A DNA stretch of 64,000 nt from a virus, in IMG/VR virus record IMGVR_UViG_3300025770_000008, positions 62,001-126,000 of that record; one strand, given 5' to 3'. Position numbers and translations under genes: made by a program. The notes below the pieces were generated by a model. It was given only the letters and a program-made list of their open reading frames with translations, made no database searches and was not told the DNA's origin. Shown here one piece after another: positions 33,073-63,429 of this stretch. The stretch's first letter is position 1. Each line of letters starts with the position of its first letter.

Positions 33073-34371
33073 CTACCTAGTCGTCTTTAGAAGTGTCGAG
33101 GTTGCTCTGGTAATCCCGCCGAGCGTAGGGGACTTCTTAGCCCTCACGATTCCGGCGTTCGTTGAGGGGACCGCCCCCTCAATGTAGTGCTCGTGGTCAC
33201 GAATCGCACGAAGCAGGTCGTGGCTGTTAATCACGACGTCGTGTCCGCCAGGGCCACCGAAATCCACACGACCACCCCCCGGCGGGGTAATGGTCAGGGC
33301 TCCGCCCTCGAACTGCATTCGTACAGCCCCTAGATTCATTGTGGCTTCAGCTGCCCTCATGTGTATCAGTTCGGTGCTTTCCAAGAGCAGTTCCCTGACC
33401 ACCGCCTTCAGCCTGTTGGACTCCGCTATAGCCTCGATGAAGCTAGCTCCGAAGACAACTTTACCCTTTTGCCCTAGCTTGAGGTACAGCGACTCGGTTT
33501 CTACCTGGATATGGCCCTTCGACATCATGAAGCAGTCACCCTCTCGGGAGACCTGTACGGCGTACGTAACCGCGGGCACCTCGTCGCGCGACATCACGGT
33601 GCAGCTGAGCACCCCAATATTAGTCGCTAATAGTTCGTAGTCGTCCTGCTTGTTCCTGGCAAATGTGTGGTGCTTGCCAGCCTTCTCCGGGTCCAGCACA
33701 TCGAACGTCAGCTGCCCGAAACGAACCTCCACCGCCGCTGCGGTGTCCTCGATGGACTCTTTGAAGTCGTACTCAATCAGCACAGCAACGGTGTCGTCGT
33801 CTTCCTCCAGGATAGTCGCGTGCCCCCACTCGATGCGCCCCTGCGGCGACCGGGCCTGATAGCGCTCGAAGTAGTCCCGGATGACATTGCCAACGGGGAT
33901 GTACAGCCGCTGGGCGATACCCGTTGCCGCAATCTGGACGATGCCCCCGCGACGAAGGACAACACGGTTGCCATCCTTGGTCGCCATCGCGATGTCGCCG
34001 GGCTCCATGTCCAAGCGGAAGCCCGAGAAGTCCGGCCCCTTCGAGGACTCGATGAGCGTAGGGGTGCCGTTCTTATCGAAGACCTCCCCCTCGACGGACT
34101 GTGGGTTGGTAACGAACCCCATCAGCATGGACGTGCCGTCTGCTGACGTGAACACGTAGGCGTAGGCACCCACCTCGGGCATCACGTACACACCACCGCC
34201 GTGGTCGGGGTGGCAGTACAGCGAGGCAAAGGGCATCTCCGCATGAGGCTTGTGCGTGAACACCCCCATGAGGCTCACCGTGAACTCGGTGGTGTTCACA
34301 TCGGTAACTTCGCACAGCTCCAGCCGCCCTGGGCGCGACGCCTGCTCAGGGGATTTAGAGAGCCCACTCAT
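33073..34371 (-). CDS. Baseplate or spike-like protein (gp5/VgrG-type fold candidate)
   Basis: A 432-residue, beta-rich protein. Residues about 60-90 (GGGVYVMPEVGAYAYVF) resemble the OB-type domain of baseplate hub/spike proteins, and the region about 115-165 (FRLDMEPGDIAMATKDGN) resembles the following beta domain. The C-terminus has an extended Gly-rich stretch (GGGRVDFGGPGGHD). Its ATG overlaps the RNA polymerase stop by one base (TAATG). Hub/spike proteins lie in baseplate clusters in myoviruses; the family is inferred, not proven. A palindrome copy lies at 33618-33632. Confidence 0.5.
   Translation of the reverse strand: MSGLSKSPEQASRPGRLELCEVTDVNTTEFTVSLMGVFTHKPHAEMPFASLYCHPDHGGGVYVMPEVGAYAYVFTSADGTSMLMGFVTNPQSVEGEVFDKNGTPTLIESSKGPDFSGFRLDMEPGDIAMATKDGNRVVLRRGGIVQIAATGIAQRLYIPVGNVIRDYFERYQARSPQGRIEWGHATILEEDDDTVAVLIEYDFKESIEDTAAAVEVRFGQLTFDVLDPEKAGKHHTFARNKQDDYELLATNIGVLSCTVMSRDEVPAVTYAVQVSREGDCFMMSKGHIQVETESLYLKLGQKGKVVFGASFIEAIAESNRLKAVVRELLLESTELIHMRAAEATMNLGAVRMQFEGGALTITPPGGGRVDFGGPGGHDVVINSHDLLRAIRDHEHYIEGAVPSTNAGIVRAKKSPTLGGITRATSTLLKTTR
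33618..33632. repeat. 15-bp palindrome site 7 (exact)
   Basis: TATTAGTCGCTAATA on the + strand. The coding strand of the baseplate-like gene reads TATTAGCGACTAATA, giving LLATN. Same position in codons as sites 5, 6 and 9, but the asymmetric spacer is in the other orientation. Confidence 0.95.
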
Positions 34372-37300
34372 TAGTACGGGCTCTTGGAGCCTGAGTCGGG
34401 CTTACCGAACTCAGCTGTGTACGCAATGCCGGGAGCCGGGTGGACCCCATGGATGTCCGACTTCCAACCCTCGTTCGCCGCGCGGGTGAAGGTCTCCTTG
34501 AGCTTCCGGTACTGCAGTCGAGCAATCCAGTCCGTGGTCTGGTCCAGGGCCAGGGTCTCGACGCCGCGGAGAACGGGGACGACCTTGACGGTCTCCTTCC
34601 CCTTGTTGGCTCGGTTGAGGGCGTTCACCTTCGTCAAACTCACGTAGTCATTACGGATGATGCCCTCCTCGTCGCCCACTTCACCGGGGTCTTCTACAAC
34701 ACCCAAGTTCGTAAGCGCGCGGACGACGACCTCGACGTTTCGCTTCTTGACCCCCGCCTCCGCATACACCCCGTGGACCTCGTCGGTCAGGTAACGCTGC
34801 ACCCGGTCCAGGTTGGTCAGCGTCAATAGCTCTCGGGGGTCAACCGGCCCCGAGCTGAGGGCATCACCCTTCTTGACCGTAGCGCCCACCTTGAACTGGA
34901 GTGTCCGACCGTGCGGTATGTAGTGCTCCTCGCCGCCGACAGTGATGTCGTAACCGCCCACCGCGCTCTTCGCTATCTTGCCCACGCGCCCGGGGACCTG
35001 AGCCAACGTGGCCTTCCCCGGCAGGGTCTGAGGAATCTTCAAGAGCTGCTTCACGCGTTCGATGCCACCCACCACAGAGCTACCGCCCGCACCGGAAGCG
35101 CCGCCTGTGTGGAACACCCGCATACTCAGCTGCGTACCGACCTCACCGATAGCCTGACCAGCGATGACCCCGATGTTTGTCCCGAGCGCAACGGGGCCAC
35201 CCCCGTCCATAGCGCCGTAGCACTTCGCGCACATCCCCTGGTGGGACTCACACTTCGTCGGCGACCGGACAACCAGACCGTCCACACGCGCGGCCTTGAG
35301 ACTTGTAACCATCTGCGGCGTGATGAGACTTCCTGCCCGGAACGACTGCCCCTTCGCCTTGACTCCCTTGACGAGAACGCGGTCTACAAGGTCGCTGTCC
35401 CCAATCTTCATGTGGATGCCCGTGGTCGTTCCGCAGTCCTCGACGGTGATGACCTGTGGGATGGCCGTGTTCACAATCTGCTTGGAGAGCGCTCCCGGCT
35501 CACTCACGGACTGCACCTTCTCGATAAGCCCCTTCCGCGCACCGGACGACGCCGTCCAGTAGCCCGCGGTGGAGAGCCCTTCTGCGTAGGACTTAGTCAC
35601 AGGAACAGGGATGATACGTCCGTCCGCGTTCTCCATCAGGAGGGGCGCGATGATGAGCTGCTGGAGCTGGGACCAGCCCGGCTTCACGCCCGCCTTGTAC
35701 ATGGTGTACAGCCGGTTCCCAGTAGCCTGCAGGTACTTCTCCGCGTCGTTTTTGATGTCAGCCGTCGCCTTTTGGTACAGCGCGACAACCTTGCCGTCCT
35801 GCTCTTTCCGTGTGCCGCCCGCCCCGCGGACCACCTTCTCGCGTGCCTGCGCGACCTTCAGGTGCTTATCCCGAATCGTGCTCAGGGTATTGAAGTCGTC
35901 AGAATCAAAACTGAACCCGCTGCTGTAGGCGAACCCGAAGCCGAGGTCCTTCAGCTTGTCTACAGAGTTAGCGAACTGCGCAGGATGGTCGGTGGCTAGG
36001 TCCCGCAGCACACCTTGGAGGCTCTTATTATTCAGGGTGAAGTCCGCATCCTCCAGCAGTTCCGCGGTTCGCAGACTCGCAGGAAGGGCACCCGCAATCT
36101 TCAATCGCCCGGCGGTGGTCTTCTTCCCGTCCACTGTGACCACATCGGTCATGGCGATGTCGCCCTTGTTGGCCGCGTCGATGGCGTCCTTGTTGCTCGC
36201 GAACTTCTCCCGGGAGCGCTTCCCGAACTGCGTGAGCATGAACAGCCCCAGCTGCCCCTCCAGCGAGGGTTGGTACATGACCTTCCCGGTCGAGGGGTTG
36301 AAGAGGTTCTTGCTGGGCATCATCTTGTACGCCTCGTCGACCGCGCCCTGCGAGATAGGCACGAACACCCCCATCGCGTCCCCGTCGAAGTCAGCGTTGA
36401 AGCCCCCCACCACCAACGGGTGGATATGGATGGCCTTCTCGTCGTCGATGATGCGCGCCTTGAACGCCATGATGCCGAACTTGTGCAGCACCGGGTCTCG
36501 CTTGAAGAGGACCGGGCGCTTGGAGGCCACGACCGCGAGCGCCTTGTTCGCCAGCGACGTGTCCTTCTCGATTTCTTCCCGCGCCTGGAGAGGTGTGTAG
36601 CCCATGGCCACCATCTCCTTGACGACGAAGGGCCGGAAGATTTTCATCGCCCCCTTCTTCGGGAGGCCCATCTCGTCCAGGTGCAGGCTCATATCCGGGA
36701 CGATGACCGACCGCATGGTCAGGTCCTGCTTGCGGTCGAGGATGGCCTTGTGGAAGTAGCTCTCCTTGGGCGAGGTGCGCCCTGAGAGGATGTTGAGGAT
36801 GCCAGGGGGCCTGGGCTGCCCATCAGTCGTCAAACCCTGGTCAGAGGCCGTGGCGGTACCCATGAGTGCTTCGACGGCGCTGTACAGTTCAGTGCGGAGC
36901 TTGAACAGCTCCGCGTCCGGCAGAACCCCTTTGGCTGCCTTCAGCTGGTCACTCAGCAACGAGACATCCCGGTAGAGCAGGTTGAGTCCGTCCACGTTGA
37001 GGTCACCCGCCTCCATCACAGAAATGGGGCGGAACTGCGGCGGAACGACCGGAAGGTTCTCCAGGACGTACGCCTCTCTAGCTGACAGCCCCGTCTTGTT
37101 GAGCATCAGGAGGTACTTGATTCTCTTGTTGACCTTGTCGAGGCTGCTGCGGCGAGCGGTCTTGATTTCTTCCTTGGCCGCGGTCAGCTCCTTGTCGACT
37201 TCGATGCCGGACAGTGCCGCTGCAAGGGCAGCGGGCCCGGTAGCCCCGCCCTCCTCTGTGACCTTGCCATCCTTGTCCAGCGAGACCTTCCCCGCGAGGA

Positions 37301-40300
37301 TGCCGTCGTACTGCTTACCAGTGAGCCCGAGCAGCGACCGAATACCCTTCTCAAAGAGGGGGTTGGGCATGGACTCAGCCAGGACCAAGTGGCTCCAGTT
37401 CTTCCCGCCAACGCCGCCTGTGATTTCCTCATCGAAGAGGCCGCCCTTCTCCGGGCGCAGGTCCTTACCACGGACCACCTTGCCGCCGTCCTCCAACGCA
37501 CCGGACGACATCTCAGTAATCTGCTTGTCGGTCATGGGGAGCACGACAAGCTCGTTGCCGTGCTTCTCGACGTTGACTCCGAGCCCGTTGAGGTACCCGA
37601 GAAACTTCTCGTACGCAAACGACGGGCGGGGCGCGGGAAGCATCTGCCCTGTCTGAATGGCCGTCCAGATTTCGTCCTGGGACCGGTCTGAGTTCCCAAC
37701 CAGGAAGCCGCGAACGAAGTACCTGTGCGTATCCTCCACCTCCAAATTGAACAAGTACTTCCCCCGCCATTCCGGCAGGTCTCCCAAGCACCCAGCAGGC
37801 TCAACTGCGTCAACCGGGGTCTCCACCAATCCCGGGGCACCAGGAGCAGAAAACTCAACCAGCTTCTGCCCAATAGGGGCCACCACATCGCAGGTCTTGT
37901 AAGACAAACTAGGGTGAAGGTACGGACCCAGCTTGCTCAAGAAGTGCTCTGCGGCCACTCCGTGCTTCTTGAGGTGGTCGACGTTGTCGTTGAAGTGCAC
38001 CTCCGTCAGCCGCTCGATAGCCGCGATGGCAGACTTCCGCTCATCCGAGTTCATCGAGTAGACCGCAAGACCCGCCTGCACACCGCCGCCATTACTCAGC
38101 GAACGATACCCACAGCCATCGTCCTGGAACCAAATTGCCAATGACCTCAACGTCAGCAGGTCCCACACCTCCTGTGGGAAGCGCCTCTCCCCAGAGGCAT
38201 AAAACTGACGATGCAATTTCAGGAACTCAGGCGTAGCGAAGCTGGACCACTCCACCATCTGCTGCCCACAGCTGAAGCCTTGGTACCCCGCGGTGTATTC
38301 CCGCAGCTCTCGGTGCGTGAACGAACTCAGTGCATCCGCCTTGAACTGGAGATACTCCCGCTGCTTCACCGAATGGCGTTCCTGGAAGTAAGGAAACCGC
38401 GAAGTCTCCTTCTGCGCCATGTAACCATCCCCCAGGAGTGAGCCCAGCAGAAGGTCATGCTGGCCCTCCGAAAGCTCGTTTCCCCAGGTGAGTATGGCAT
38501 CCACCCCAGGGCGGAGGTCTTTCGCCCACACCTTCTCCAGCTGCCCCTCGCGCCGAACGTAGAACTGGTGCTCCTCGGTACAGAGAACCGTCCCTTTCAC
38601 GAAGGCAAACTCGCCGCTCCGCCTGCGGTGCGCCGTAACACGCACAAGCCGGTCCTGCTCCCCGTTACGCCTCCAGTAATTCTTGATGGGCCGGTAGCAC
38701 AGCCCTTCTTCGTCCGACCACGTCAGCACCTTGACCGGGAGGCGATTGGTGACAATCTTTCCAATCTCGATTTCGCCTTGGTCGGTCAGCACCTTCTCGT
38801 GATACGGGAAGCACTTCCACGACAGAGCGTCGCGGATGTTGTTGACCGCGCCGTGGGCAATCATCGCGTAGAGGCCCAGCTCGCCGTACCGCTGAGCGCC
38901 GTCGTTACCACCGTAGGTACCTCGCGGCACCATGTTGGCGTTGTAAGCATGCCCGTAGCCGTGCGCGCGGGCAGACAGCTTCTTGTCGACTTGGTGTTCC
39001 TGCTTGAGGATGTACTGGTGCCCCGTCATGACTGGGCCCAGGCTCTTCCCCGTCTCCGGGTCGAACAGCTCCGTCGTCTCCGACAGGCCCTTCTTCTCCA
39101 GGATTTGGTCAATGAGCCCCTTGTAACCGGTCTCGTACTCGTAGGGTTCAATCCAGATGCGCTTCGAGCCCTTCCCGGACTTGATTGTCCGGTAGTGCCC
39201 CTTGACCTGGACGATCTTGGTGGACACGTCGCCCACGCTGATGCGGTGCCCCTCGTCGCCATCGAAGTTCGAGACCGCGTAGGGCTTCCCGTCCTCGACC
39301 GCTGCGAGCGTGATGGCGTTCTCCAGGACCTGCCCAGGATTGATGCGCCCAGGAACACCCGAGGGGTTCAGCACAATCTCCAGCGGGGCACCATCGCCAT
39401 CCCGGGGCATCTCCTCGTCCGGGAGGATGGCAACCACGACGCCTTTGTTCCCATGGCGTGAGGTCAGCTTGTCGCCGATGTCGGCCTCTTCTGCCGTCTT
39501 GACGTAAGCGACGACCTCTTTGCCGTTACGCACGACCTCCGTGACCACACCCGTGTACGGCTTGTTCCACGTGAGCGAGCGGTCCCTGTAGGGCTTGGCC
39601 AAGCTCTTGTGGATGCCCTTGAGCATGATTTGCTCTGCCGAAGGGTCCGCCTCCTTGAGCACTGTGGCAATCACGTCACCAGGGCGGACGATTTCGCCAC
39701 GCTTGATGACCCCATCCTCGTCGAGCTTGGCGGCGTTCGCGTCAGAGACAACCCCGGGGAAGTTCGCACGGAACTTCTTCAGCCCCATCATCATCCCGGT
39801 GTCCAGGTACACACGCGGCTTGTGCAGGTGCTCACTGGTGAGCTTCTTGGCGGCCGTCTCACTAATGGTGATGCCGTCCTCGTAGTTGAGCCCCTTGTAC
39901 GCCAGATAGCCCACGCGCAGATTGGTGCCCATCGAGAGGACGCCGCCCTTGGTGAAGCTAGTGTCAGCGATGACGTCGTCCTTCTTGACCTCGTCGCCCT
40001 TCTGCACCAGGGGCTTGCTGGTAACGAACGCCTTGGAGTCGTTGAGGGGGTAGTTATCGTAGAGCTGGACAACGTGCTTCTTGCCGTCGTCCCCTGCCAC
40101 CACAATGCGCTCGGCTTCGACCGACTTCACCGTCCCGGACACCGGGCTGGCGTGTGACTGCATTTGGCCGAGAATCTTCTCCCAGGTGTCCCATGCCGGC
40201 TGGTCCGAGCCAGAAGCCACCTGAAGAAGGGGCTCCTCGGGGTTCTTCAGCGGAACCGTCTGCTCCATGTGACGCGCAGCCATTCCCGCACGGTTCGCTT

Positions 40301-41807
40301 GGTCAGAGGGCAAGAACGGTATGAGGTTCGCAGTGAATGAGAACATCGCCTTGGGAGATCGCAGAACATAGTCCACCTCGTTGGCTTTCACATTGGTGGG
40401 GTCACCCTCACCCCCGCGGATGACCGTGATGAGGTCTTTCCGAGGCTTGAAGGTCTTTCCGTCTCCCGTGTCGTACTGGTCGGGAAAGGCCAGCGTCTTC
40501 CCGTGCAGCTCCGTGGGGGAGACATCCGCCCACTTGCTGTTCTTCACGTCCCACACCTTGATGACCGGCTCGTTGCCTCGCTTGGAGACACCCAGCGTCA
40601 GGTGCGTGGTGATACCACTTCGGGTCCCCTCCGGGCTGTGAAACGGGTCAGTGAAGCCCATCTGGCTAGAGTCCAGCATCTTGGCAGAATGACTGACCGC
40701 GTTCTCCGTGCTGATACCGCCGGTGCCCATCAGGGTGGCTTTGAGGTGCCCGCCAATCATGTCGACCGGGTTCAGCTGTGAGGGGCGCTGAGACAGGGAG
40801 GTCGAGGTGAAGAACGACTTGACCGGGACGTTGAAAACGTCAGGGGTCACAATCTTGCGGATGTCGTCACGGCGGTCCAGGTTGTTGCGGATCTTCCGCT
40901 CCACCCGACGACGCGAGTTCTTGATGCGCTCCGGGAGGTGGTCGGCCACCGTCCACAGCTCCTTGAACCGGAGGGAGTCACGGTTGTCCACCTCGGCCGT
41001 CCCACGAGAAACGCCGAGCAGCTTATTAGCCGCTAATAGCAGCGCCTCGCCGGTGACGGTCGTGAAGCCCTTGCCCAAGGTGACGCTGGTGGTGTCCGGG
41101 CGAAGCTCGGTCGCCGCGAACGACTCACGTACAACATCCTCGACCTCCTCGGGAGTGGTCGCTTCGGACCGGGGGTTCAGGGTCTTGGCGAGCTTCGCCA
41201 TCTGCCCTTTGCGCTGAAGGCGTGCGGCGGTCTGGTAGACCTCCGGCCCCCAGGCCGTCTCCATCTCCTCGGCGCTGATACCCAGTGTCTGAAGAAGGGG
41301 CACGAGGGGCGTGTTGGTCGTCCCGTGGGTGGCCAGGAACTGGCGCTTCTTGGGGTCGAAGCTCACACGGAACCCGCGGCCCTTGCTCAGGTTGAACTGG
41401 GTCTCCAGTCCGCCGTTAGCCTTCATACGTGTGTACGCGCCGGCCTTGAGGCGCCACTGGTTGTCTGCTTGGTACTCCGTCCCGTCCACGATGAACGAGT
41501 ACCGGCGGGTGTAGTGCGGCAGATTCAGCAGCCGCACGCCCTTGGTTTTCGACACCACTTTGCCGGAGGCTTTGTCCACCAGCTCCATGTCCGCGAGGAT
41601 GGGGACCGCCCATGTCCGATTGCGGACCCTGGCCCGCTTTTGAGCGTGTATGTCGTCGATGTGGACGTTGGGCCCAGCATAGACGTTTGTAGCGCGCAAG
41701 ATGCGCGTCCGCCCCTCAATCGGGAGGGTGTCTTTGAGAACCTGGATTGTGCCGTCTTTGAGGGCTTGCATCGCCCTCTCTGGGTCCAGGGTATGGATAT
41801 CCGCCAT
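34371..41807 (-). CDS. Single-chain beta-beta' RNA polymerase precursor with intein
   Basis: A 2478-residue precursor, about 2104 after splicing. The N-terminal half is beta-like: LNYEDGITISE near 638, SRHGNKGVV near 781 and the KLSARAHGYGH to AQRYGELGL region near 955. The C-terminal half is beta'-like: RPEKGGLFDEEI near 1449, catalytic GFNADFDGD near 1805, and GTNIGVIAGQAIGE then VGTQLSMR near 2210. A CAKCYG pair is kept; the usual N-terminal beta' zinc ribbon seems lost. The ATG at 41807 (MADIHTLDPE) is preferred over one 13 codons upstream because of an AGAGG site. No alpha, omega or sigma gene is seen. Confidence 0.93.
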   Translation of the reverse strand: MADIHTLDPERAMQALKDGTIQVLKDTLPIEGRTRILRATNVYAGPNVHIDDIHAQKRARVRNRTWAVPILADMELVDKASGKVVSKTKGVRLLNLPHYTRRYSFIVDGTEYQADNQWRLKAGAYTRMKANGGLETQFNLSKGRGFRVSFDPKKRQFLATHGTTNTPLVPLLQTLGISAEEMETAWGPEVYQTAARLQRKGQMAKLAKTLNPRSEATTPEEVEDVVRESFAATELRPDTTSVTLGKGFTTVTGEALLLAANKLLGVSRGTAEVDNRDSLRFKELWTVADHLPERIKNSRRRVERKIRNNLDRRDDIRKIVTPDVFNVPVKSFFTSTSLSQRPSQLNPVDMIGGHLKATLMGTGGISTENAVSHSAKMLDSSQMGFTDPFHSPEGTRSGITTHLTLGVSKRGNEPVIKVWDVKNSKWADVSPTELHGKTLAFPDQYDTGDGKTFKPRKDLITVIRGGEGDPTNVKANEVDYVLRSPKAMFSFTANLIPFLPSDQANRAGMAARHMEQTVPLKNPEEPLLQVASGSDQPAWDTWEKILGQMQSHASPVSGTVKSVEAERIVVAGDDGKKHVVQLYDNYPLNDSKAFVTSKPLVQKGDEVKKDDVIADTSFTKGGVLSMGTNLRVGYLAYKGLNYEDGITISETAAKKLTSEHLHKPRVYLDTGMMMGLKKFRANFPGVVSDANAAKLDEDGVIKRGEIVRPGDVIATVLKEADPSAEQIMLKGIHKSLAKPYRDRSLTWNKPYTGVVTEVVRNGKEVVAYVKTAEEADIGDKLTSRHGNKGVVVAILPDEEMPRDGDGAPLEIVLNPSGVPGRINPGQVLENAITLAAVEDGKPYAVSNFDGDEGHRISVGDVSTKIVQVKGHYRTIKSGKGSKRIWIEPYEYETGYKGLIDQILEKKGLSETTELFDPETGKSLGPVMTGHQYILKQEHQVDKKLSARAHGYGHAYNANMVPRGTYGGNDGAQRYGELGLYAMIAHGAVNNIRDALSWKCFPYHEKVLTDQGEIEIGKIVTNRLPVKVLTWSDEEGLCYRPIKNYWRRNGEQDRLVRVTAHRRRSGEFAFVKGTVLCTEEHQFYVRREGQLEKVWAKDLRPGVDAILTWGNELSEGQHDLLLGSLLGDGYMAQKETSRFPYFQERHSVKQREYLQFKADALSSFTHRELREYTAGYQGFSCGQQMVEWSSFATPEFLKLHRQFYASGERRFPQEVWDLLTLRSLAIWFQDDGCGYRSLSNGGGVQAGLAVYSMNSDERKSAIAAIERLTEVHFNDNVDHLKKHGVAAEHFLSKLGPYLHPSLSYKTCDVVAPIGQKLVEFSAPGAPGLVETPVDAVEPAGCLGDLPEWRGKYLFNLEVEDTHRYFVRGFLVGNSDRSQDEIWTAIQTGQMLPAPRPSFAYEKFLGYLNGLGVNVEKHGNELVVLPMTDKQITEMSSGALEDGGKVVRGKDLRPEKGGLFDEEITGGVGGKNWSHLVLAESMPNPLFEKGIRSLLGLTGKQYDGILAGKVSLDKDGKVTEEGGATGPAALAAALSGIEVDKELTAAKEEIKTARRSSLDKVNKRIKYLLMLNKTGLSAREAYVLENLPVVPPQFRPISVMEAGDLNVDGLNLLYRDVSLLSDQLKAAKGVLPDAELFKLRTELYSAVEALMGTATASDQGLTTDGQPRPPGILNILSGRTSPKESYFHKAILDRKQDLTMRSVIVPDMSLHLDEMGLPKKGAMKIFRPFVVKEMVAMGYTPLQAREEIEKDTSLANKALAVVASKRPVLFKRDPVLHKFGIMAFKARIIDDEKAIHIHPLVVGGFNADFDGDAMGVFVPISQGAVDEAYKMMPSKNLFNPSTGKVMYQPSLEGQLGLFMLTQFGKRSREKFASNKDAIDAANKGDIAMTDVVTVDGKKTTAGRLKIAGALPASLRTAELLEDADFTLNNKSLQGVLRDLATDHPAQFANSVDKLKDLGFGFAYSSGFSFDSDDFNTLSTIRDKHLKVAQAREKVVRGAGGTRKEQDGKVVALYQKATADIKNDAEKYLQATGNRLYTMYKAGVKPGWSQLQQLIIAPLLMENADGRIIPVPVTKSYAEGLSTAGYWTASSGARKGLIEKVQSVSEPGALSKQIVNTAIPQVITVEDCGTTTGIHMKIGDSDLVDRVLVKGVKAKGQSFRAGSLITPQMVTSLKAARVDGLVVRSPTKCESHQGMCAKCYGAMDGGGPVALGTNIGVIAGQAIGEVGTQLSMRVFHTGGASGAGGSSVVGGIERVKQLLKIPQTLPGKATLAQVPGRVGKIAKSAVGGYDITVGGEEHYIPHGRTLQFKVGATVKKGDALSSGPVDPRELLTLTNLDRVQRYLTDEVHGVYAEAGVKKRNVEVVVRALTNLGVVEDPGEVGDEEGIIRNDYVSLTKVNALNRANKGKETVKVVPVLRGVETLALDQTTDWIARLQYRKLKETFTRAANEGWKSDIHGVHPAPGIAYTAEFGKPDSGSKSPY
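37692..38813 (-). mobile_element. Intein (LAGLIDADG type) in RNA polymerase beta KSDD motif
   Basis: A 374-residue intein, Cys999 (CFPYHEKVLTD) to Asn1372 (GFLVGN), followed by extein Ser. Removal rejoins DALSWK | SDRSQDE, the KSDD-type motif near the end of the beta part. LAGLIDADG motifs LLLGSLLGDGY and LAIWFQDDGC suggest a homing endonuclease. The terminal HRYFVRGFLVGN block is canonical. Whether it splices efficiently decides whether the phage polymerase is active, so it could also be a regulatory switch. Confidence 0.92.
41024..41038. repeat. 15-bp palindrome site 8 (exact)
   Basis: TATTAGCCGCTAATA on the + strand, inside the RNA polymerase gene; the coding strand reads TATTAGCGGCTAATA and codes LLAAN. 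Arms of 7 bp are fully symmetric around one base. Confidence 0.95.
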
Positions 41808-41887
41808 CGGGGAAAAGCCTCTGTTTTGGGGCGTACCTTCGCCCATACTAGCAGCGCACGGCCTGCGCTAAACAGGTTCTCCTTCTT

Positions 41888-54384: not shown

Positions 54385-57183
54385 TTGGGTAAGTTCGCCG
54401 TCCTTCCTCCTACCATGCTCATCAAGACGCGGCAGGAGGCCGAAGTCGCCCTCGCCCAGCTGCGCATTGGGAAGGGCGGCAAGCGCTCTCGCGTAGTCGC
54501 GATTGACACTGAGACCACCGGCTTGAGCCGGCAACGCGACTACGCGCTCATCATGAGCCTTTCTACCGGGCCGAACCGCTACGCGATATGGCCCGAGGCG
54601 TTCTCCTACTTCACGGAGTACCTAGAAGACCCTGAGCTACAGCTGCTCATGTGGAACGCCAACTTCGACACCTGGATGCTGCGGAACGCCGGCATCGACA
54701 TCTACCGCAACTGCGACCGCACGACCTACCGCGTCTTCGACGCCATGATTATGCACGCGCTGGATTACGACGACCGGCCGCACACACTGAAGTACGCAGC
54801 CAAGGAGATGCTCGGCATCGTTATGGTGGACTTCAAGGCCACCTTCGGCGCGCAGATGCGCACCCGGAAGCTGCACGAGATATTCCTGGACCCCGCCAAT
54901 GAGCCTGTCGTGGCGAACTACGCGGGGCTCGACGCCTACTCAACCTTCGCCCTGGCAGTCGCGCTCCAGAAGAAACTATTAGCGACTAATACTGGTGTCG
55001 AGGAGTACCCCACCCTGTGGGACTACTTCCGGCACACCGAGGTCCCCTTCACCCGGGTCCTCTTCGAGTGCGAGAGCAACGGCATCGGGCTGGACAAGCA
55101 CCGGCTCATCGCAATCGCGCCTGAACTCGACCGCAAGATGATTGCCCTCATGCGGTGGTTCGTGAAGAAGACCAAGAAGGTGGGCATCAACCTCAACTCA
55201 AACCCGCAGATGATTGAGCTGTTCTTTGGGGACCTGGGGTACAACCCCCCCTCGTACACCGAGAAAGGTGCCCCACAGCTCCCGCAGAAGTGGTTGTCGC
55301 GCATCGCTTCTGATGGTTGTGTCTACGCGGACAAGTTGCTCGCCTACCGCGACCTGAAGAAGAAGCAAGCCACCTACGTGCGTGGGCTGCTCAAGTTGGA
55401 GCACCGCGGGCGCATCCACACCACGTACAAGCAAGCTGGTGCTCGTACCGGCCGCCTATCGAGCGCGGATCCGAATTTACAAAATCAACCTGGGTACATC
55501 CGCTTCGCCTACATCGCGGGCGAAGAAAAAGTACTAATTGCTAGGGATTACTGCTTCGCAACCGGCACCCTGGTTGACACCCCGCTCGGCCCTCGGCCGA
55601 TTGAATCTTTGCAGGTGGGGGACCCTGTCTTCTCCTACGACCCTGACAGGCGGGTTCCTGTAGTAGGTACCGTAGATGAGCACCACGCTGTCGGCGTTGA
55701 GCCCGTCGTTGAGATTGAGCTGGACAACGGAGAGCGGATTGTCTGCACGGGCGAGCACAAGTTCATGGTTTGTCCTGAGAAGTACGTGGCAGACCCCATT
55801 GGCGTAGAGGCGCAGGACCTAATCCCTGGAATGCGCCTGCTTCCTCTGCGGAGGGCGTACGGGGGGACGAACCGAAATTACGAGCATCTCTACGCCCATC
55901 AAGCGGTCGTTTATTCCAAGACGCACACAGAGGTAGCGGCCTGGGCGATGGGCGCCCGCCCTGAGGGCTACCACACGCACCACAAGGACGGAGACAGCCT
56001 AAACAACCACCCCGATAACCTGGAGTACCTGGACGCCCGCCTGCACCTCTCCGAGCACGCGAAGGAGTCTTGTACGCGTCAATGGCGGGACCCTGAGACG
56101 CGTGCAGCCATGCAGTCGGGTATCCGTCAGAGCATCGCCGACCGTGGGGGCTACAACGGGAAAAACAATCCCCGTCATGGCGACCGTAGGGGGCGGGTGT
56201 ACACCGCCTGCCTGTTCTGTGACCAACCGATAGAGACATTCGCTTCTACGAAGAAGAAGTACTGCTCCCGTACCTGTTACTTCGACCACAAAAGACAGGG
56301 AGGAAACCACAAGGTCGTAGCTGTCCGGCAGCTGCAAGTAAACCAGCAGGTGTGGAGCATCGGAGTAGCGCCGCACAGAAACTACGCGCTGGCTGCAGGG
56401 GTCTTCGTAAAGAACAGCCAACTGGAGATGCGCATCGTCGCGCACTTCAGCCAGGAGCCCAATCTCATCCAGGCTATCCGTAGTGGGCAGGATGTCCACT
56501 GCTCCTGCGCCGCGCTCATGTTCAAGCTGCCTTACGACGAAATCATGGCAGCTCGGGCACGGGACGACGAGATCGACGAACTGAAAAAGGCCGGGCACCC
56601 GTACGAGCCGCTGAGTCCCCGAGAGATAGAGTGCCTCACGGCCCGGAAGGCGGCCAAGGCCATCAACTTCGGCCTGATTTACGGCATGGGTCCGCAGAAG
56701 CTCAGCCGAGAGCTGCGGGTCAAGGTGGAGGTCGCCAAGGACTACATCCGCACGTACTTCCAGCAGATGCCCGGGGTGCAGGACCACCTTCGTCGGGTCA
56801 TTGGTTTAGCCGAAGAGTCCGGGGTAGTCACCACCATTCTCGGTCGGCGGCGGCAAATCCCGGGCATCTGGTCCCACCTACGCGGGGATATCGCCCAGGC
56901 GGAACGCCGCGCCAAGAACACTCCCATCCAGGGGACCGCGGCGGACGTCACCAAGATGGCCATGATTAAGACCTACGAGGATGACTGGCTCTACGAGATG
57001 GGCTACCGCATGCTCCTACAGGTCCACGATGAAATCGTCGGGGAGGCCCCAATCTCCGCGGCTCGTAATCCCCGTTTTGTTGGACGCCTCCAGCACCATA
57101 TGGAACACTCGTTGCCATATGACCTGCTGGTCCCCCTAGACACCACCGGAAAAGACGCGGCCGACTGGGCTGGGTGCAAGTAA
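54385..57183 (+). CDS. Family A DNA polymerase with 3'-5' exonuclease and intein
   Basis: A 932-residue precursor, about 644 after splicing, starting at TTG 54385 (GGAG 6 bases before) or at ATG 54415. Exonuclease motifs: AIDTETTG (Asp41, Glu43), NANFDTWML, and YAGLDAYSTF. Polymerase motif A is split: IARDY | SQLEMRI (DYSQxE). Motif B is RKAAKAINFGLIYG near 754, motif C HDEIVG near 880. No 5' nuclease domain. It would copy the phage genome. A palindrome copy lies at 54977-54991. Confidence 0.93.
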   Translation: MGKFAVLPPTMLIKTRQEAEVALAQLRIGKGGKRSRVVAIDTETTGLSRQRDYALIMSLSTGPNRYAIWPEAFSYFTEYLEDPELQLLMWNANFDTWMLRNAGIDIYRNCDRTTYRVFDAMIMHALDYDDRPHTLKYAAKEMLGIVMVDFKATFGAQMRTRKLHEIFLDPANEPVVANYAGLDAYSTFALAVALQKKLLATNTGVEEYPTLWDYFRHTEVPFTRVLFECESNGIGLDKHRLIAIAPELDRKMIALMRWFVKKTKKVGINLNSNPQMIELFFGDLGYNPPSYTEKGAPQLPQKWLSRIASDGCVYADKLLAYRDLKKKQATYVRGLLKLEHRGRIHTTYKQAGARTGRLSSADPNLQNQPGYIRFAYIAGEEKVLIARDYCFATGTLVDTPLGPRPIESLQVGDPVFSYDPDRRVPVVGTVDEHHAVGVEPVVEIELDNGERIVCTGEHKFMVCPEKYVADPIGVEAQDLIPGMRLLPLRRAYGGTNRNYEHLYAHQAVVYSKTHTEVAAWAMGARPEGYHTHHKDGDSLNNHPDNLEYLDARLHLSEHAKESCTRQWRDPETRAAMQSGIRQSIADRGGYNGKNNPRHGDRRGRVYTACLFCDQPIETFASTKKKYCSRTCYFDHKRQGGNHKVVAVRQLQVNQQVWSIGVAPHRNYALAAGVFVKNSQLEMRIVAHFSQEPNLIQAIRSGQDVHCSCAALMFKLPYDEIMAARARDDEIDELKKAGHPYEPLSPREIECLTARKAAKAINFGLIYGMGPQKLSRELRVKVEVAKDYIRTYFQQMPGVQDHLRRVIGLAEESGVVTTILGRRRQIPGIWSHLRGDIAQAERRAKNTPIQGTAADVTKMAMIKTYEDDWLYEMGYRMLLQVHDEIVGEAPISAARNPRFVGRLQHHMEHSLPYDLLVPLDTTGKDAADWAGCK
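54977..54991. repeat. 15-bp palindrome site 11 (exact)
   Basis: TATTAGCGACTAATA on the + strand, inside the polymerase exonuclease-to-palm region. The codons read LLATN. It is the same residue string as site 7, in an unrelated protein. Confidence 0.95.
55552..56415 (+). mobile_element. Intein (HNH type) in DNA polymerase motif A
   Basis: A 288-residue intein from Cys390 (CFATGTLVDTPLG) to Asn677 (AAGVFVKN), followed by extein Ser. Removal rejoins ARDY | SQLEMRI, the catalytic Asp motif. It carries an HNH-type endonuclease (HHKDGDSLNNHPDNLEYLD), unlike the LAGLIDADG endonucleases of the other two. A zinc-type Cys cluster (CLFCD, CSRTC) follows it. Bases just upstream (GTACTAATTGCTAGG) are AT-rich in codon choice, perhaps a remnant of homing. 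Confidence 0.93.
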
Positions 57184-58948: not shown

Positions 58949-60142
58949 GTGGCGAAGGGTAGAAGCAAGTTCGACAAGCTCCGAGCGAAGATCGAGAAAG
59001 ACATGAAGGGGGCCGTCCGCATCCAGGATGTAGAGGACGTCACTGCTCCTTTCCACCTTCGTCGGCCCAGCGGTGTCCTCAACCTGGACATCGGGACAGA
59101 CGGCGGGATGCCTGGGGGTTCCATCGTCCAGCTCCATGGCAGGGACGGAGTCAGCAAGACCGGGCTCAGCTTCCATTATTGCGCCGAGAACCAGCGCGTC
59201 TACGGTGCGGAGTCCGCCATCTTCGTTGCGTCGTTCGGGTACAAGCCGGACCTGAACTACATGCGCATGTGCGGGATGCGGCTGGCTCTCAGTGACCAGG
59301 AGGTCCTTGAGGCCGGGTACACCCTGGAGGACGTGCCTGCTGCGGTCCGTGGGGAGACTATCGGGGAGGTGTTCTTCCTCGACCTGGGCTTGGTCAACAT
59401 CGCCGCGGAAGCTCCTGCAGAGACAATCTTCGCCGCAGCGGCGTCGTTGGTGGAGTCGGGGATGTTCCAGCTGGGTGTCGTTGACGAGTTCGGCTCCGGT
59501 GAAACGAAGGACGTCGTCGTGAAGGGCCTGGAGGAGACCGTGAAGGTCGCCGCTTGGGCCAGCCTCGTCACCCGCTTCTGCCAGCGGATGTACACCATTC
59601 TCCGGATACCGCTGGAAGACGGTAGTCCGAACGCCACCACGCTCTTTGTCCTCAACCCCGCTCGCGCTGCAGGCGTTGGCGGTAGCGGTGGCAGGGTGAA
59701 GCCCGGGTATGTGCCCCCGGACAACATGACCTCCGGCTTCGCACTGAAGCACGCCAAGGCTGTCGACATCCTCCTCAAGAGCGGTGCCCAGGTAAAGCAG
59801 GGCAAGAACCGCGTCGGCAAGCAGGTGCACTGGCGCATCATCAAGGGGAAGCACGGGCTCCATGAGGGGCTCAGTGGTACCTACGTGTGGCTGGACGGCG
59901 AGGGCATCGACATGGTGACCGAGCTGGCCAATGCCGCCAAGACGTTCGACACCATCCATCGGGCCGGACGGTGGTGGCGCATCTTGGATTACGAGGACAA
60001 GATCGAGGGCGGCTTGGAGGGCGTGATTGACCTACTACGAGAAGAGCCCGAGCTGTATCAGGAGCTGTACGAGAAGACCATCGCAGAGGCCCAGGACTCG
60101 CTCATCCTGGACGACGACGACTCAATCCACGAAGACAAGTAG
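58949..60142 (+). CDS. RecA/UvsX-like recombinase
   Basis: A 397-residue protein from a GTG start behind AAGGGG. It has the RecA-like opening GGMPGGSIVQLHGRDGVSKT, in which the P-loop (64-71) has Ser before Lys where Gly-Lys is usual, Walker B-type GMFQLGVVDEFG (about 172-183), and the later beta core ending IIKGKHG and WLDGEG. It would promote strand exchange in repair and replication restart, with the helicase and nucleases beside it. The P-loop variant is unusual and needs a residue-level comparison with UvsX. Confidence 0.8.
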   Translation: MAKGRSKFDKLRAKIEKDMKGAVRIQDVEDVTAPFHLRRPSGVLNLDIGTDGGMPGGSIVQLHGRDGVSKTGLSFHYCAENQRVYGAESAIFVASFGYKPDLNYMRMCGMRLALSDQEVLEAGYTLEDVPAAVRGETIGEVFFLDLGLVNIAAEAPAETIFAAAASLVESGMFQLGVVDEFGSGETKDVVVKGLEETVKVAAWASLVTRFCQRMYTILRIPLEDGSPNATTLFVLNPARAAGVGGSGGRVKPGYVPPDNMTSGFALKHAKAVDILLKSGAQVKQGKNRVGKQVHWRIIKGKHGLHEGLSGTYVWLDGEGIDMVTELANAAKTFDTIHRAGRWWRILDYEDKIEGGLEGVIDLLREEPELYQELYEKTIAEAQDSLILDDDDSIHEDK

Positions 60143-60160: not shown

Positions 60161-60934
60161 GTGAAGGTGCTCATTCGTACCACCAAGGGTACAACGAAGC
60201 AGGTAACGGGCAGGCCCTTGGTACGCGGATTGGCGTTCCATCCTTCCCTCTCAAACACGCCGACCAACGGCAACCTGCACAACATCACACACTTGGAGAG
60301 CGGGCTATCCGTGCTCCACCAAGTTCCGCATGACGCGATACCCCGGATAGCTGAGATGCTCGCGGTGGTGAGCTGGGATACCAGCTCTTCCATCATCTTC
60401 GACTCGGCCGAGCACACCAACACCCTGGAAGACTGCCTGGAGTTCCTCGTGGCATACAAACATCGATTCAGCCAACGCTGTGAGGCGGATGTAGCCAAGG
60501 ACCTGGGTGGCAAGGTCCAGCCTGCGAGCGGGTCGCTCCCCGGCTATAAGCGGGACATCCTCACCGCGGACATCCTGGCCGAGCACAAGACCTCCGAGCC
60601 GGGGTCGCAGTCGGCCGACTACCGGGATGTCGACCTGAGGGACCTTGAGTTCCATAGACGTCAGGCGCTCAGCATCGGCAAGGTGCCCGCCTACATCTTC
60701 GCCTTCGAGGGTCAGGACAGCATCGTGTTCCTCCCCGCGGATGAACTCGACGACGATTTGGCGGGCATGAACTTCCACGAGGTCGACGTTTCCTCGCAGG
60801 TGGTTTGGCGGCTGCACAGGGCGACCGGCCTGAAGCTGAACGAGACCACTTGGCTCAAGCTGATTCTCGCCAAGCGGGTCTGGCTGGGTGTGCCCTACCT
60901 GGACTTTCTGGAACTGGCGAAAGGCAACTTCTGA
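60161..60934 (+). CDS. PD-(D/E)XK-type nuclease candidate
   Basis: A 257-residue protein from a GTG start behind GAGGGGGG. About residues 130-190: GYKRDILTADILAEHKTSE, then DLRDLEFHRRQALSIGKVPAYIF, with an E-x-K-like EHK. The core Glu/Lys pair and following Gln/Ala-rich helix match PD-(D/E)XK nucleases of the resolvase type. The family is inferred. It lies between the recombinase and the macro-nuclease fusion, with overlap (TGATG) to the latter. Recombination or end-processing role is likely. Confidence 0.55.
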   Translation: MKVLIRTTKGTTKQVTGRPLVRGLAFHPSLSNTPTNGNLHNITHLESGLSVLHQVPHDAIPRIAEMLAVVSWDTSSSIIFDSAEHTNTLEDCLEFLVAYKHRFSQRCEADVAKDLGGKVQPASGSLPGYKRDILTADILAEHKTSEPGSQSADYRDVDLRDLEFHRRQALSIGKVPAYIFAFEGQDSIVFLPADELDDDLAGMNFHEVDVSSQVVWRLHRATGLKLNETTWLKLILAKRVWLGVPYLDFLELAKGNF

Positions 60935-62121
60935 TGGTTCAGATGTGCACCGGGGACATCTTCGCAAGCACCGCGGACGCCCTGGTAAACCCAGTAAACT
61001 GTGAGGGGGTCATGGGTGCCGGGCTGGCACTGCAGTTCAAGAAGCGCTTTCCCGAGAACTTCACAGCGTACGCCAAGGTGTGCCAGGACGGCGACCTCCA
61101 CCCCGGTAAGCTCTTCACCTTCGAGGACCCCGCGTCGAACAGGCTCATTGTAAACGCCGCGACCAAGGCCGAGTGGCGTAACCCGTCGAACCTAGACTGG
61201 GTAGTCAGCCTAGGGGAAGAGTTGCGCCAGCTAACGGAGGAGCGAGACATCAAGCGGCTCGCTGTCCCGGCGCTTGGCACCGGTTTGGGCACGCTCCCGT
61301 GGCTCGCGGTCCGGGACATTTTGGCGGAGAGCCTTATGACCTCCTCCGTCGAAATTGAGCTGTACGAGCCGAGGGGCTACGAGCCGCCCACACTGCCCCA
61401 GGAGGGGTACTACGCCTCGGCCTGCCTCAGCCACACGGGGAAGCCCGCCGCCAACGCGGACTACTCTCTCGTCTCCTACATCCGGTTCTCCCGGGGAGAC
61501 GACGCCAAGACCTACGACCGCAAGATTGGGTGCTACCACCCTTCCGCTGTGAGCCTTGAGGGATGCAACCGCGCCCTGGCTTACGAGCGGCTTGCGGTTA
61601 CCCCGAGGCCCGTCCCCAGGACGCACGGCTTCGGAGTCAACGTCTTCGACCTCGGGGACGCAATCCACGACGCCATCCAAGGCCGCCTCTCCAAGGTGAC
61701 CGGAGTTCATGGACAGCGTTTCCATCCTGAGGTCGAAATCAGCTACCCCCCGCTGGGGCTCTACGGACACTGCGATGGCGTGTTCGGGCAGCTGGTGGTG
61801 GAAATCAAGAGTGTGAGCAAGAACATCTTCAAGGGGCTCAAGGCCCCGATGGCTAGCCACATTCGCCAACTGCACTGCTACATGCTGGCTCTGGATATTC
61901 CATACGGAGTCATCCTGTACGTGTGCCGAGACAACGGAGAATTCCGAGAGTTTCCCGTCCACTTCAGGGCGGACGTGCTGGCGCGCATCGCCACCACGAT
62001 TCACAACATCGAAGCCCACTTGCGACGCGGAGTGATTCCTGACCAGGAACCGAACTCGTTCATCTGTTCACGCTGCAAATTTCTCTACACGTGTAAGCCG
62101 GACCTAGCCAAAGATGAGTGA
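60934..62121 (+). CDS. DarG-type macro domain fused to Fe-S PD-(D/E)XK nuclease
   Basis: A 395-residue protein; the ATG at 60934 follows the previous stop. Residues 5-135 are a macro domain close to DarG: GDIFASTADALVNPVNCEGVM at the start, Lys78 in ATKAEWRNPS, and PALGTGLGTL. DarG removes ADP-ribose from DNA thymidine. Residues about 196-390 fit a Cas4/RecB-type nuclease: Cys211, His245, Asp281, Glu290-x-Lys292, Gln312, and Cys378, Cys381, Cys387 for a 4Fe-4S cluster. So it may strip DNA ADP-ribose and then trim DNA ends. Both halves look intact; the fusion seems rare. Confidence 0.75.
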   Translation: MVQMCTGDIFASTADALVNPVNCEGVMGAGLALQFKKRFPENFTAYAKVCQDGDLHPGKLFTFEDPASNRLIVNAATKAEWRNPSNLDWVVSLGEELRQLTEERDIKRLAVPALGTGLGTLPWLAVRDILAESLMTSSVEIELYEPRGYEPPTLPQEGYYASACLSHTGKPAANADYSLVSYIRFSRGDDAKTYDRKIGCYHPSAVSLEGCNRALAYERLAVTPRPVPRTHGFGVNVFDLGDAIHDAIQGRLSKVTGVHGQRFHPEVEISYPPLGLYGHCDGVFGQLVVEIKSVSKNIFKGLKAPMASHIRQLHCYMLALDIPYGVILYVCRDNGEFREFPVHFRADVLARIATTIHNIEAHLRRGVIPDQEPNSFICSRCKFLYTCKPDLAKDE

Positions 62122-62725
62122 ACCCGTAGACCCGTTCAGCGAAGCCGCTCGGTGGATCAGCGAACAAATCGCGCAGTACCCCAGCCCTGCTCTCCCCGAC
62201 GCCATCAACGACCTGAGCCTCGTCGAGGTCAAGGCGTACTACGACGTGCTCATGCGGCACCATGACCAACTCTCAACAAAGCTTGCGGCCACGTTGGGAA
62301 TTGCTGGTGTCTCTGAAGAGCGTCTGAAGGTGTCAGAAGCTGGGGCGCTACTCCGCACCAACAAGGACAAGACCCTCACAAACGCCGCCCTACGCGATGC
62401 AGCGGTTCGGTCGGATGGACACGTGGTCCATGCCCGACTGGACATGCTTCGCTCGGACGGCCTCAAGCGAGCCCTGGAGGCACTCAGAAAAGATACAAGC
62501 AAGCGCATGCAGCGCCTCGACCGAGAACTCTACGAGCGGAACGGCCCCAGCGGTCGTTCCTGGAATTCCTCAGGCACACAGACCGGGCGTACTAGGTCCG
62601 ACCGGCCGAACTACTCGAACCCGCCGCGCTCCGACTCTACCCCAGCGACGGGGAAGGCGCCGCGGAGCATGATGCAAAAGGCGCGGGTCCAGGTGGCCCG
62701 AGAAGAGGTGGAGGACGACGAGTGA
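62114..62725 (+). CDS. Unidentified helical protein before the resolvase
   Basis: A 203-residue protein, ATG overlapping the previous gene. A helical N-terminal part (about 30-140; LSLVEVKAYYDVLMRHHDQL) is followed by a Ser/Arg/Pro-rich, likely disordered C-terminus (about 145-203). No enzyme motif. The position between nuclease and resolvase suggests a recombination cofactor. It overlaps the RuvC-like gene by 4 bases. Function unknown. Confidence 0.45.
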   Translation: MSEPVDPFSEAARWISEQIAQYPSPALPDAINDLSLVEVKAYYDVLMRHHDQLSTKLAATLGIAGVSEERLKVSEAGALLRTNKDKTLTNAALRDAAVRSDGHVVHARLDMLRSDGLKRALEALRKDTSKRMQRLDRELYERNGPSGRSWNSSGTQTGRTRSDRPNYSNPPRSDSTPATGKAPRSMMQKARVQVAREEVEDDE

Positions 62726-63429
62726 TTATCACGGTAGGCATCGACCCCGGGAAGAGCGGCGCAATCGCGGTCGTGGCAGACGGCGCGCAAGTATTAGTCG
62801 CTAATAATGTCCCCACGGCCGGGAAGAATTACCTACCGGCCCAGATGGCTGCGCTACTGCTCCCCTTCGCCGCGTTGTGGCGGGAGCGGGACGCGCCTCT
62901 CCGACTGCTCCATACCTACACCGACCTCCTGGACGCCGTCAAAAACCCGGACATGCCGGAGGAGGAATTCGAGCAGGTCTACACGTGGAGCGAGGTCGCC
63001 CTGGCGGCCTACATGCAGCAAGACGACCGCGCCGTTCTGGCCATGGTCGAGAAGCAGCGTGGGAGGAAGGGTGAAGGCCCTGAGCGCCTCGTCCAAATCG
63101 GCAAAGGCTGGGGCCTGTGGGAGGGCATCTGCGCCACACTGTGCATCCCGTACGAGGAGGTCTCTGGCCCCAAGTGGGAGCGGGCTATGGGGTGCTCAAC
63201 CGCAGCGTCGGTCTCGCTCACGCAGAAAGCCGGCGAGGAGGACAAAGCCTTCGATAAGCGTGAGAAGGCTGCCAAGGCCAAGGCCCAGCGAGACAAGAAA
63301 CACTCCCACGTCGCCCAGGCGCAGGCGTTGTTTCCTGACTGCCTCATAAAGGCATCCGACGACGGGCTCGCCGACGCCCTCCTACTAGCTGTGTACGCCT
63401 TCAGGACCTATCAGGGTAGGGAGCAGTAA
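62722..63429 (+). CDS. RuvC-like Holliday junction resolvase
   Basis: A 235-residue protein from a GTG start. RuvC signatures: Asp8 in GIDPGKSGA, Glu110 in AMVEKQ, and Asp213-Asp218 in SDDGLADALLLAV near the end. The region between (about 165-205) is Lys/Ala-rich. It would cut branched recombination or packaging intermediates, with the recombinase and nucleases upstream. It contains palindrome site 12 (62792-62806), coding LVANN. A clean call. Confidence 0.85.
   Translation: MIITVGIDPGKSGAIAVVADGAQVLVANNVPTAGKNYLPAQMAALLLPFAALWRERDAPLRLLHTYTDLLDAVKNPDMPEEEFEQVYTWSEVALAAYMQQDDRAVLAMVEKQRGRKGEGPERLVQIGKGWGLWEGICATLCIPYEEVSGPKWERAMGCSTAASVSLTQKAGEEDKAFDKREKAAKAKAQRDKKHSHVAQAQALFPDCLIKASDDGLADALLLAVYAFRTYQGREQ
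62792..62806. repeat. 15-bp palindrome site 12 (exact)
   Basis: TATTAGTCGCTAATA on the + strand, inside the resolvase near its start. Reads VLVANN. The rightmost copy seen; the series may continue beyond the window. Confidence 0.95.

What the first reader, a model, noticed from the sequence alone, without database searches (positions are those of the whole stretch)
60934..62121. DarG-type macro domain fused to an Fe-S Cas4/RecB-like nuclease
DarT toxins ADP-ribosylate thymidine in DNA and block phages; DarG macro domains reverse this. Here the macro domain (Lys78 in TK-x2-W-R) is joined to a nuclease with the full four-Cys Fe-S pattern and D-ExK core. A single enzyme could remove or resect modified DNA. 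Its neighbours are a recombinase, a nuclease and a resolvase, so it may work within repair as well as counter-defence.
Basis: partly seen in the sequence, partly recalled or inferred. Interest (0 to 1): 0.8.

Follow-up and report, generated by a model that had tools for sequence, protein, structure and literature searches.

The report
ADP-ribose eraser fused to phage exonuclease
One lineage of uncultivated phage has joined an enzyme domain that can strip ADP-ribose (a chemical tag some bacteria put on DNA to stop phages) to the front of the nuclease of its DNA-recombination gene set, which suggests a repair nuclease with a built-in tag remover, although its activity on DNA is untested.

Summary
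Window 60934-62121 (+) encodes one 395-residue protein. Residues 1-150 are a macro domain whose nearest solved relatives are DarG macrodomains, with the catalytic lysine kept (K78 = T. aquaticus K80). Residues about 154-395 are a complete Cas4-fold PD-(D/E)XK nuclease with C211/C378/C381/C387 and H245/D281/E290/K292.

The nuclease is the third gene of a UvsX - endonuclease - nuclease cassette found in the same order in 23 other viral contigs. In none of them is a macro domain present, and 19 relatives' records hold no macro domain at all. Only this virus, seen in three contigs identical over 9 kb, has the macro domain at the nuclease start. Of 161 nearest macro relatives, none except its own copies carries a nuclease; no record among 50,697 phages or 72,556 plasmids holds the fusion.

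"DarG-type" is only partly right. The DarG C-terminal DarT-binding half is absent, there is no DarT in the record, the NCBIfam DarG cut-off is not met, and the domain resembles orphan phage macro domains (Ala29), whose substrates are unknown. Its tree position is unresolved.

Best reading: a recombination exonuclease that removes ADP-ribose from the DNA it processes. This is inferred, not shown.

The parts
60934..62121 (+). Macro-Cas4-type nuclease fusion gene, 395 aa
   Evidence: same frame in two identical IMG/VR contigs
60934..61383 (+). Macro domain, residues 1-150; N22, T77, K78, W81, G115, G117, G119 kept; A29 and L118 differ from T. aquaticus DarG K29 and N120
61384..61515 (+). Residues 151-194: linker, then (from about 154) the former N-terminus of the stand-alone nuclease, with C164 aligned to its conserved RC; low confidence in the models
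61400..61407 (+). AGGAGGGG, a Shine-Dalgarno-like string at the domain junction with no start codon behind it; possible relic of the nuclease's old ribosome-binding site
   Evidence: 3 copies on the + strand of 64 kb; suggestive only
61516..62118 (+). Cas4-fold PD-(D/E)XK nuclease core, residues 195-395
61564..61566 (+). C211, first Fe-S cysteine
   Evidence: invariant in alignment A6; codon positions
62065..62094 (+). C378-x2-C381-x5-C387, the other three Fe-S cysteines
   Evidence: invariant in alignment A6
58949..60142 (+). UvsX/RecA-like recombinase, first gene of the conserved cassette
60161..60934 (+). 257-aa PD-(D/E)XK-like protein (PHROG Holliday junction resolvase, E 3e-8), second gene of the cassette
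62114..62725 (+). 203-aa protein of unknown function; relatives have a protein of similar length in this place
62722..63429 (+). Holliday junction resolvase family (phrog_1770, E 7.6e-16); RusA-like resolvase in this place in relatives

Best explanation
A Cas4-type recombination exonuclease of a phage has gained an N-terminal macro domain and so became a nuclease with a built-in eraser. Shown by computation: both domains are complete with intact active-site residues; the nuclease belongs to a conserved UvsX - endonuclease - nuclease cassette; the macro domain is present in this lineage only, joined at the old gene start. Inferred: the nuclease resects DNA ends to give single-stranded DNA for UvsX; single-stranded DNA is what host DarT toxins tag with ADP-ribose; the macro domain, held at the same place, hydrolyses the ADP-ribose-base bond through K78, so that resection, strand exchange and recombination-dependent replication are not blocked. 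It would then counter DarTG-type defence, or another source of DNA ADP-ribosylation, by repairing the product rather than by inhibiting the toxin.
For: Nearest solved relatives by sequence and by fold are DarG macrodomains (5m31 E 5.7e-29; 5m3e with ADP-ribose, Foldseek E 2.8e-16, TM 0.92 by target, rmsd 1.4 A). K78, N22, T77, W81 and the glycine loop are kept; in T. aquaticus DarG K80A is inactive and the isolated macrodomain is enough to rescue DarT toxicity (PMC5179494). The nuclease has the Cas4 fold with four Cys and the catalytic core. Cassette order is conserved in 23 other contigs, and no Macro match was found in 19 relatives' records, so the domain was added to a DNA-processing enzyme in this lineage. 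The GC3 of the macro part (0.82) equals that of its neighbours. DarT lesions are met by homologous recombination in E. coli (PMC7003065). Parallel: L111 pairs a DarT-HD protein with a macro domain joined to a weak DprA-like domain, also with Ala at position 29.
Against: No activity has been shown. The macro domain resembles orphan phage macro domains: Ala29 instead of the K/R found in 110 of 113 DarT-linked relatives, and L118 for N120. Its tree position is unresolved. A survey of viral ADP-ribose systems predicts small ADP-ribose derivatives as the main substrates of phage macro domains (PMC9503650). The host, and whether it carries DarTG, are unknown. The fusion is known from one lineage only.
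Confidence: 0.45

Rival explanations
1. The macro domain works on something other than ADP-ribosylated DNA: small ADP-ribose derivatives from host defence or RNA repair, or ADP-ribosylated proteins such as the phage's own recombination proteins. The fusion only places it at the recombination machinery or ties its expression to it.
For: The domain resembles orphan phage macro domains with no DarT partner: 0 of 36 short viral relatives lie beside DarT. Ala29 is common among them. The viral survey argues for small substrates for most phage macro domains (PMC9503650).
Against: Covalent fusion to a DNA nuclease points to a DNA-bound substrate more than to a diffusible one. DarG is the closest solved family by sequence and fold. 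Three DarT-linked relatives, L149, L111 and L190, also have Ala29, so Ala29 does not exclude a DarT link.
Confidence: 0.27
2. The macro domain is a reader rather than an eraser: it binds ADP-ribosylated DNA and brings the nuclease there, so that tagged DNA (host or damaged) is cut or resected instead of cleaned.
For: Fused reader-nuclease designs are a common logic (general knowledge, not tested here).
Against: The catalytic lysine and N22, the two positions whose mutation hurt T. aquaticus DarG most, are kept; a pure reader would not need them. Cutting its own tagged genome would harm a phage.
Confidence: 0.13
3. The fusion has no joint function: the two genes became one reading frame by chance, and the nuclease and macro domain act apart.
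For: Only one lineage has it. Codon use of the two parts is similar, so age cannot be judged. A Shine-Dalgarno-like string at the junction fits simple loss of a start codon.
Against: Both active sites and all four cysteines are intact, and this is the only macro domain in the whole record.
Confidence: 0.12
4. Assembly chimera or wrong start codon.
For: The sequence comes from metagenome assembly.
Against: Three contigs agree without a difference over 9,067 bp. The nuclease's own N-terminus aligns through the junction from residue 154. The ATG of the macro domain takes the place of the nuclease start, overlapping the upstream stop as in most relatives.
Confidence: 0.03

Closest known systems
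DarG (DNA ADP-ribosyl glycohydrolase antitoxin of DarTG), macrodomain structures 5m31/5m3e/5m3i
   Same: Macro domain 40% identical; fold TM 0.92; catalytic lysine, N22, T77, W81 and glycine loop kept
   Different: No DarG C-terminal DarT-binding half, no DarT neighbour or DarT in the record, Ala29 instead of K/R, L118 instead of N120, and a nuclease in place of the C-terminal half
Phage Cas4-type exonucleases (PHROG 1706/1990; fold of SSO0001 Cas4, lambda exonuclease, RecE, MGME1)
   Same: Four Cys, H-D-ExK-Q core, place in a recombination cassette
   Different: Relatives in the cassette lack the macro domain; this one bears it
Orphan phage macro domains (PHROG 335 'phosphatase', 30914; for example L015, L052, L073)
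   Same: Closest in motif (NPVN, GVMGAGLA, ALGxGLG); no DarT partner
   Different: Those are about 145-170-residue single-domain proteins
Phage anti-DarT factors AdfA and AdfB, and polymerase escape mutants
   Same: Would answer the same defence
   Different: AdfB acts on DarT, likely by direct interaction, AdfA is hypothesised to inhibit it, and polymerase mutants likely bypass the lesion (PMC11481870); this would remove the lesion enzymatically
UvrD-Cas4-like and Cas1-Cas4 fusions
   Same: Cas4-family nuclease fused to another DNA-processing domain (PMC5704561)
   Different: No macro-Cas4 fusion is mentioned in the main text of that survey

Membership tests
DarG antitoxin | N-terminal macro domain of DarG type with catalytic lysine | tested here: met
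   PADLOC DarG 2.2e-53; K78 = T. aquaticus K80; Foldseek top hit 5m3e
DarG antitoxin | C-terminal DarT-binding domain | tested here: not met
   Profile of 60 DarG C-termini finds nothing in the protein at E 1000 with all filters off; the C-terminus is a nuclease
DarG antitoxin | Encoded beside DarT | tested here: not met
   No PF14487 match in the 142,974-bp record
DarG antitoxin | NCBIfam NF048014 curated cut-off (250 bits) | tested here: not met
   168.1 bits
DarG antitoxin | Removes ADP-ribose from DNA | not testable with these tools
   Needs an assay
DarG antitoxin | Phylogenetic place inside DarT-linked macro domains | tested here: inconclusive
   Falls outside in quick trees with weak support; AU p 0.574 for being inside
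Phage Cas4-type (RecB-like) nuclease | PD-(D/E)XK core with H, D, ExK, Q | tested here: met
   H245, D281, E290, K292, Q312 invariant in the family
Phage Cas4-type (RecB-like) nuclease | Four-cysteine Fe-S site, one upstream and three downstream | tested here: met
   C211, C378, C381, C387; cluster itself not shown; low pLDDT at the C-terminal cysteines in the full-length model
Phage Cas4-type (RecB-like) nuclease | Cas4 fold | tested here: met
   SSO0001 Foldseek E 1.7e-8, VIA Z 14.2, rmsd 3.2 over 174 residues; profile E 6.5e-6
CRISPR-associated Cas4 (CAS-Cas4) | NCBIfam TIGR00372 cut-off (65 bits) | tested here: not met
   34.9 bits
CRISPR-associated Cas4 (CAS-Cas4) | Beside cas1/cas2 | tested here: not met
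   Neighbours are recombination genes; no cas1/cas2 among the neighbours scanned

The most novel reading that the evidence does not exclude
A phage recombination exonuclease with an ADP-ribosyl-DNA eraser in the same chain: an enzymatic, lesion-repairing answer to DarT-type defence built into the phage's own recombination machinery, and direct contextual evidence that a phage macro domain acts on DNA.
Probability: 0.4. Interest if true: 0.82.

Novelty: new variant of a known kind. Interest (0 to 1): 0.6.

Why it matters
Macro domains are common in large phages (40% of medium-sized and 56% of jumbo phages in one survey), yet outside toxin-antitoxin pairs there is no direct evidence that any phage macro domain acts on a macromolecule (PMC9503650). 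A macro domain held in one chain with a DNA exonuclease is a strong contextual hint that some act on DNA, and it makes the question testable with one protein and two oligonucleotides. If true, it adds lesion removal to the known phage answers to DarTG (toxin inhibitors and polymerase bypass).

Tried and rejected
Full-length alignment with many macro domains plus nucleases: MAFFT misaligned the nucleases, so a smaller set was used for the full-length model and the nuclease was modelled apart. Scan of genome contigs with the whole protein found nothing. Searching for more ADP-ribose genes in the virus: no DarT, no NADAR, one macro domain; Pfam scan of 61 predicted ORFs in the first 64 kb of the record gave no NAD or ADP-ribose family. 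Position 29 as a diagnostic for DarT partnership: K/R in 110 of 113 DarT-linked macro domains, but three exceptions with Ala (L149, L111, L190), so it is a tendency, not a test. Phylogenetic placement of the macro domain: unresolved. Selection on the fused gene could not be measured, because all copies are identical. Full-text searches for a macro-nuclease fusion found none; only open-licence papers are held, and supplements could not be read.

Full report
What is there. The gene at 60934-62121 (+) is a single open frame of 395 codons starting at an ATG that overlaps the TGA of the gene before it. Residues 1-150 are a macro domain: Pfam PF01661 E 3.9e-14, PADLOC DarG E 2.2e-53, solved relatives T. 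aquaticus DarG 5m31 E 5.7e-29 and M. tuberculosis DarG 5m3i E 7.2e-28. The second half is a Cas4-type nuclease: PHROG 1706 E 2e-29 and PHROG 1990 E 3e-12, PADLOC Cas4 E 2.5e-10. These nuclease residues are invariant in a 12-member family alignment, along with H245 and Q312. C164 and C200 are not part of the four-cysteine set.

The fusion is real. Two IMG/VR contigs (3300025623_000443, 3300025727_000009) hold the same gene and agree with the window without a difference over the 9,067 bp compared. The nuclease's stand-alone relatives begin with about 40 residues before the HPS motif, and this stretch aligns with the fusion from about residue 154, through the junction. So a whole macro domain sits in front of a whole nuclease. 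At the junction (61400) lies AGGAGGGG with no start codon behind it. The string occurs three times on the + strand of the window, so it may be a relic of the nuclease's own ribosome-binding site. This is suggestive only.

Where it lies. The gene follows a UvsX/RecA-like recombinase (58949-60142) and a 257-residue protein of a Holliday-junction-resolvase PHROG (60161-60934), and precedes a 203-residue protein of unknown function and a resolvase-family protein (62722-63429). Profiles of the three genes, run on loci fetched with each of them, find the order UvsX - endonuclease - nuclease in 23 other viral contigs, some of them copies of one virus. In none is a macro domain present in the cassette. 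A whole-record search for PF01661 in 19 relatives' records (10, 9, several over 130 kb) finds none; only the two copies of this virus ring. The simplest history is gain of a macro domain by an existing recombination nuclease in this lineage. The GC3 of the macro part (0.82) is that of its neighbours.

How rare. No record among 50,697 phages covers 80% of the protein, nor any of 72,556 plasmids. Of 161 nearest macro relatives (81 viral, 80 genomic contigs), a nuclease profile finds only this gene's own copies. Papers held give no macro-nuclease fusion, with the limit that only open-licence texts are searched.

Structure. A full-length AlphaFold2 model (mean pLDDT 72.9) has the macro fold; Foldseek puts the DarG macrodomains first (5m3e with bound ADP-ribose, E 2.8e-16, TM 0.92 by target length, rmsd 1.4 A), then TARG1. 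A model of the nuclease half (core pLDDT about 80-94) matches Cas4 SSO0001 (Foldseek E 1.7e-8; VIA Z 14.2, rmsd 3.2 A over 174 residues), LHK-Exo, lambda exonuclease, MGME1 and RecE; a sequence profile also finds SSO0001, E 6.5e-6. The region 151-195 and the stretch around the C-terminal cysteines have low confidence in the full-length model, so the arrangement of the two domains is not known.

Is it DarG? In T. aquaticus DarG, K80A is inactive, N22A is next worst, and K29E and G119E also hurt; the macrodomain alone rescues cells from DarT (PMC5179494). Here K80, N22, T79, W83, G117, G119 and G121 are kept as K78, N22, T77, W81, G115, G117 and G119; K29 is Ala and N120 is Leu. Position 29 is K or R in 110 of 113 DarT-linked relatives and Ala in 18 of 37 orphan viral ones; three DarT-linked exceptions with Ala exist, so this is a tendency. 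Nearly all long (about 350-residue) relatives lie beside DarT, and none of 36 short viral ones does (Pfam confirms DarT in 35 of 53 upstream genes). In quick trees the window's domain falls among the short viral ones, weakly, and an AU test does not reject a place with the DarT-linked ones (p 0.574). The DarG C-terminal half is absent, the NCBIfam DarG cut-off is missed (168 against 250 bits), and no DarT or NADAR is found in the record. So it is a DarG-like macro domain, not a DarG.

What it most likely does. DarT modifies single-stranded DNA and stalls replication, and E. coli survives this through RecA/RecFOR/Ruv recombination followed by excision repair (PMC7003065). A phage exonuclease that makes single-stranded DNA for its recombinase exposes exactly the form of DNA that DarT tags, so an eraser in the same chain would protect resection and strand exchange. 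This is inference. The chief rival comes from a survey of viral NAD/ADP-ribose systems, which holds that most phage macro domains act on small ADP-ribose derivatives while allowing that a few may remove ADP-ribose from DNA (PMC9503650). Covalent union with a DNA nuclease is, in my judgement, better evidence for a DNA substrate than gene neighbourhood alone. A parallel in passing: locus L111 pairs a DarT-HD protein with a macro domain joined to a weak DprA-like match, again a macro domain tied to a DNA-recombination type of protein, and with Ala at position 29.

Known phage answers to DarTG are AdfB, which likely acts on DarT by direct interaction, AdfA, a hypothesised direct inhibitor, and polymerase mutations that likely bypass the lesion (PMC11481870). 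An enzymatic eraser built into the recombination nuclease would be a new variant. It stays unproven until an assay on ADP-ribosylated oligonucleotides is done.

Noticed in passing
L111:1-1335 and the macro ORF that follows; also L190 and L112: A DarT domain fused to an HD domain (Pfam DarT 4.6e-42, HD 3.2e-7), followed by a macro domain joined to a weak DprA-like match (PF02481 3.1e-5, under its cut-off). This looks like a variant DarTG pair without the usual DarG C-terminus; L190 and L112 group with it in the macro tree.
   Followed up: partly
window 34371-41846 (-): A single 2,491-aa ORF with Rpb2-type and Rpb1-type RNA polymerase domains in one chain, and a LAGLIDADG endonuclease domain (probable intein) between them.
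   Followed up: partly
window 54385-57183 (+): Family A DNA polymerase ORF interrupted by a Hint/intein with an HNH endonuclease.
   Followed up: no
L030:4266-5681: A relative of the nuclease with a different N-terminal extension of about 240 residues, with its own cysteine run (CKRCPFNEKGC) and no Pfam match; the separate endonuclease gene was not found in that locus. Possibly a tandem nuclease.
   Followed up: partly
neighbours of short viral macro genes, L015-L115: Genes beside orphan phage macro domains include DNA polymerase, helicases, an exonuclease, endonuclease VII and DNA methyltransferases, a mild hint that orphan phage macro domains go with DNA metabolism. No background rate was measured.
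   Followed up: partly
window 62722-63429 against L012:7151-7579: The resolvase after the cassette differs: a PHROG 1770 Holliday-junction-resolvase protein in the window, a RusA-like one in relatives, which looks like a swap of resolvase type at one place.
   Followed up: no
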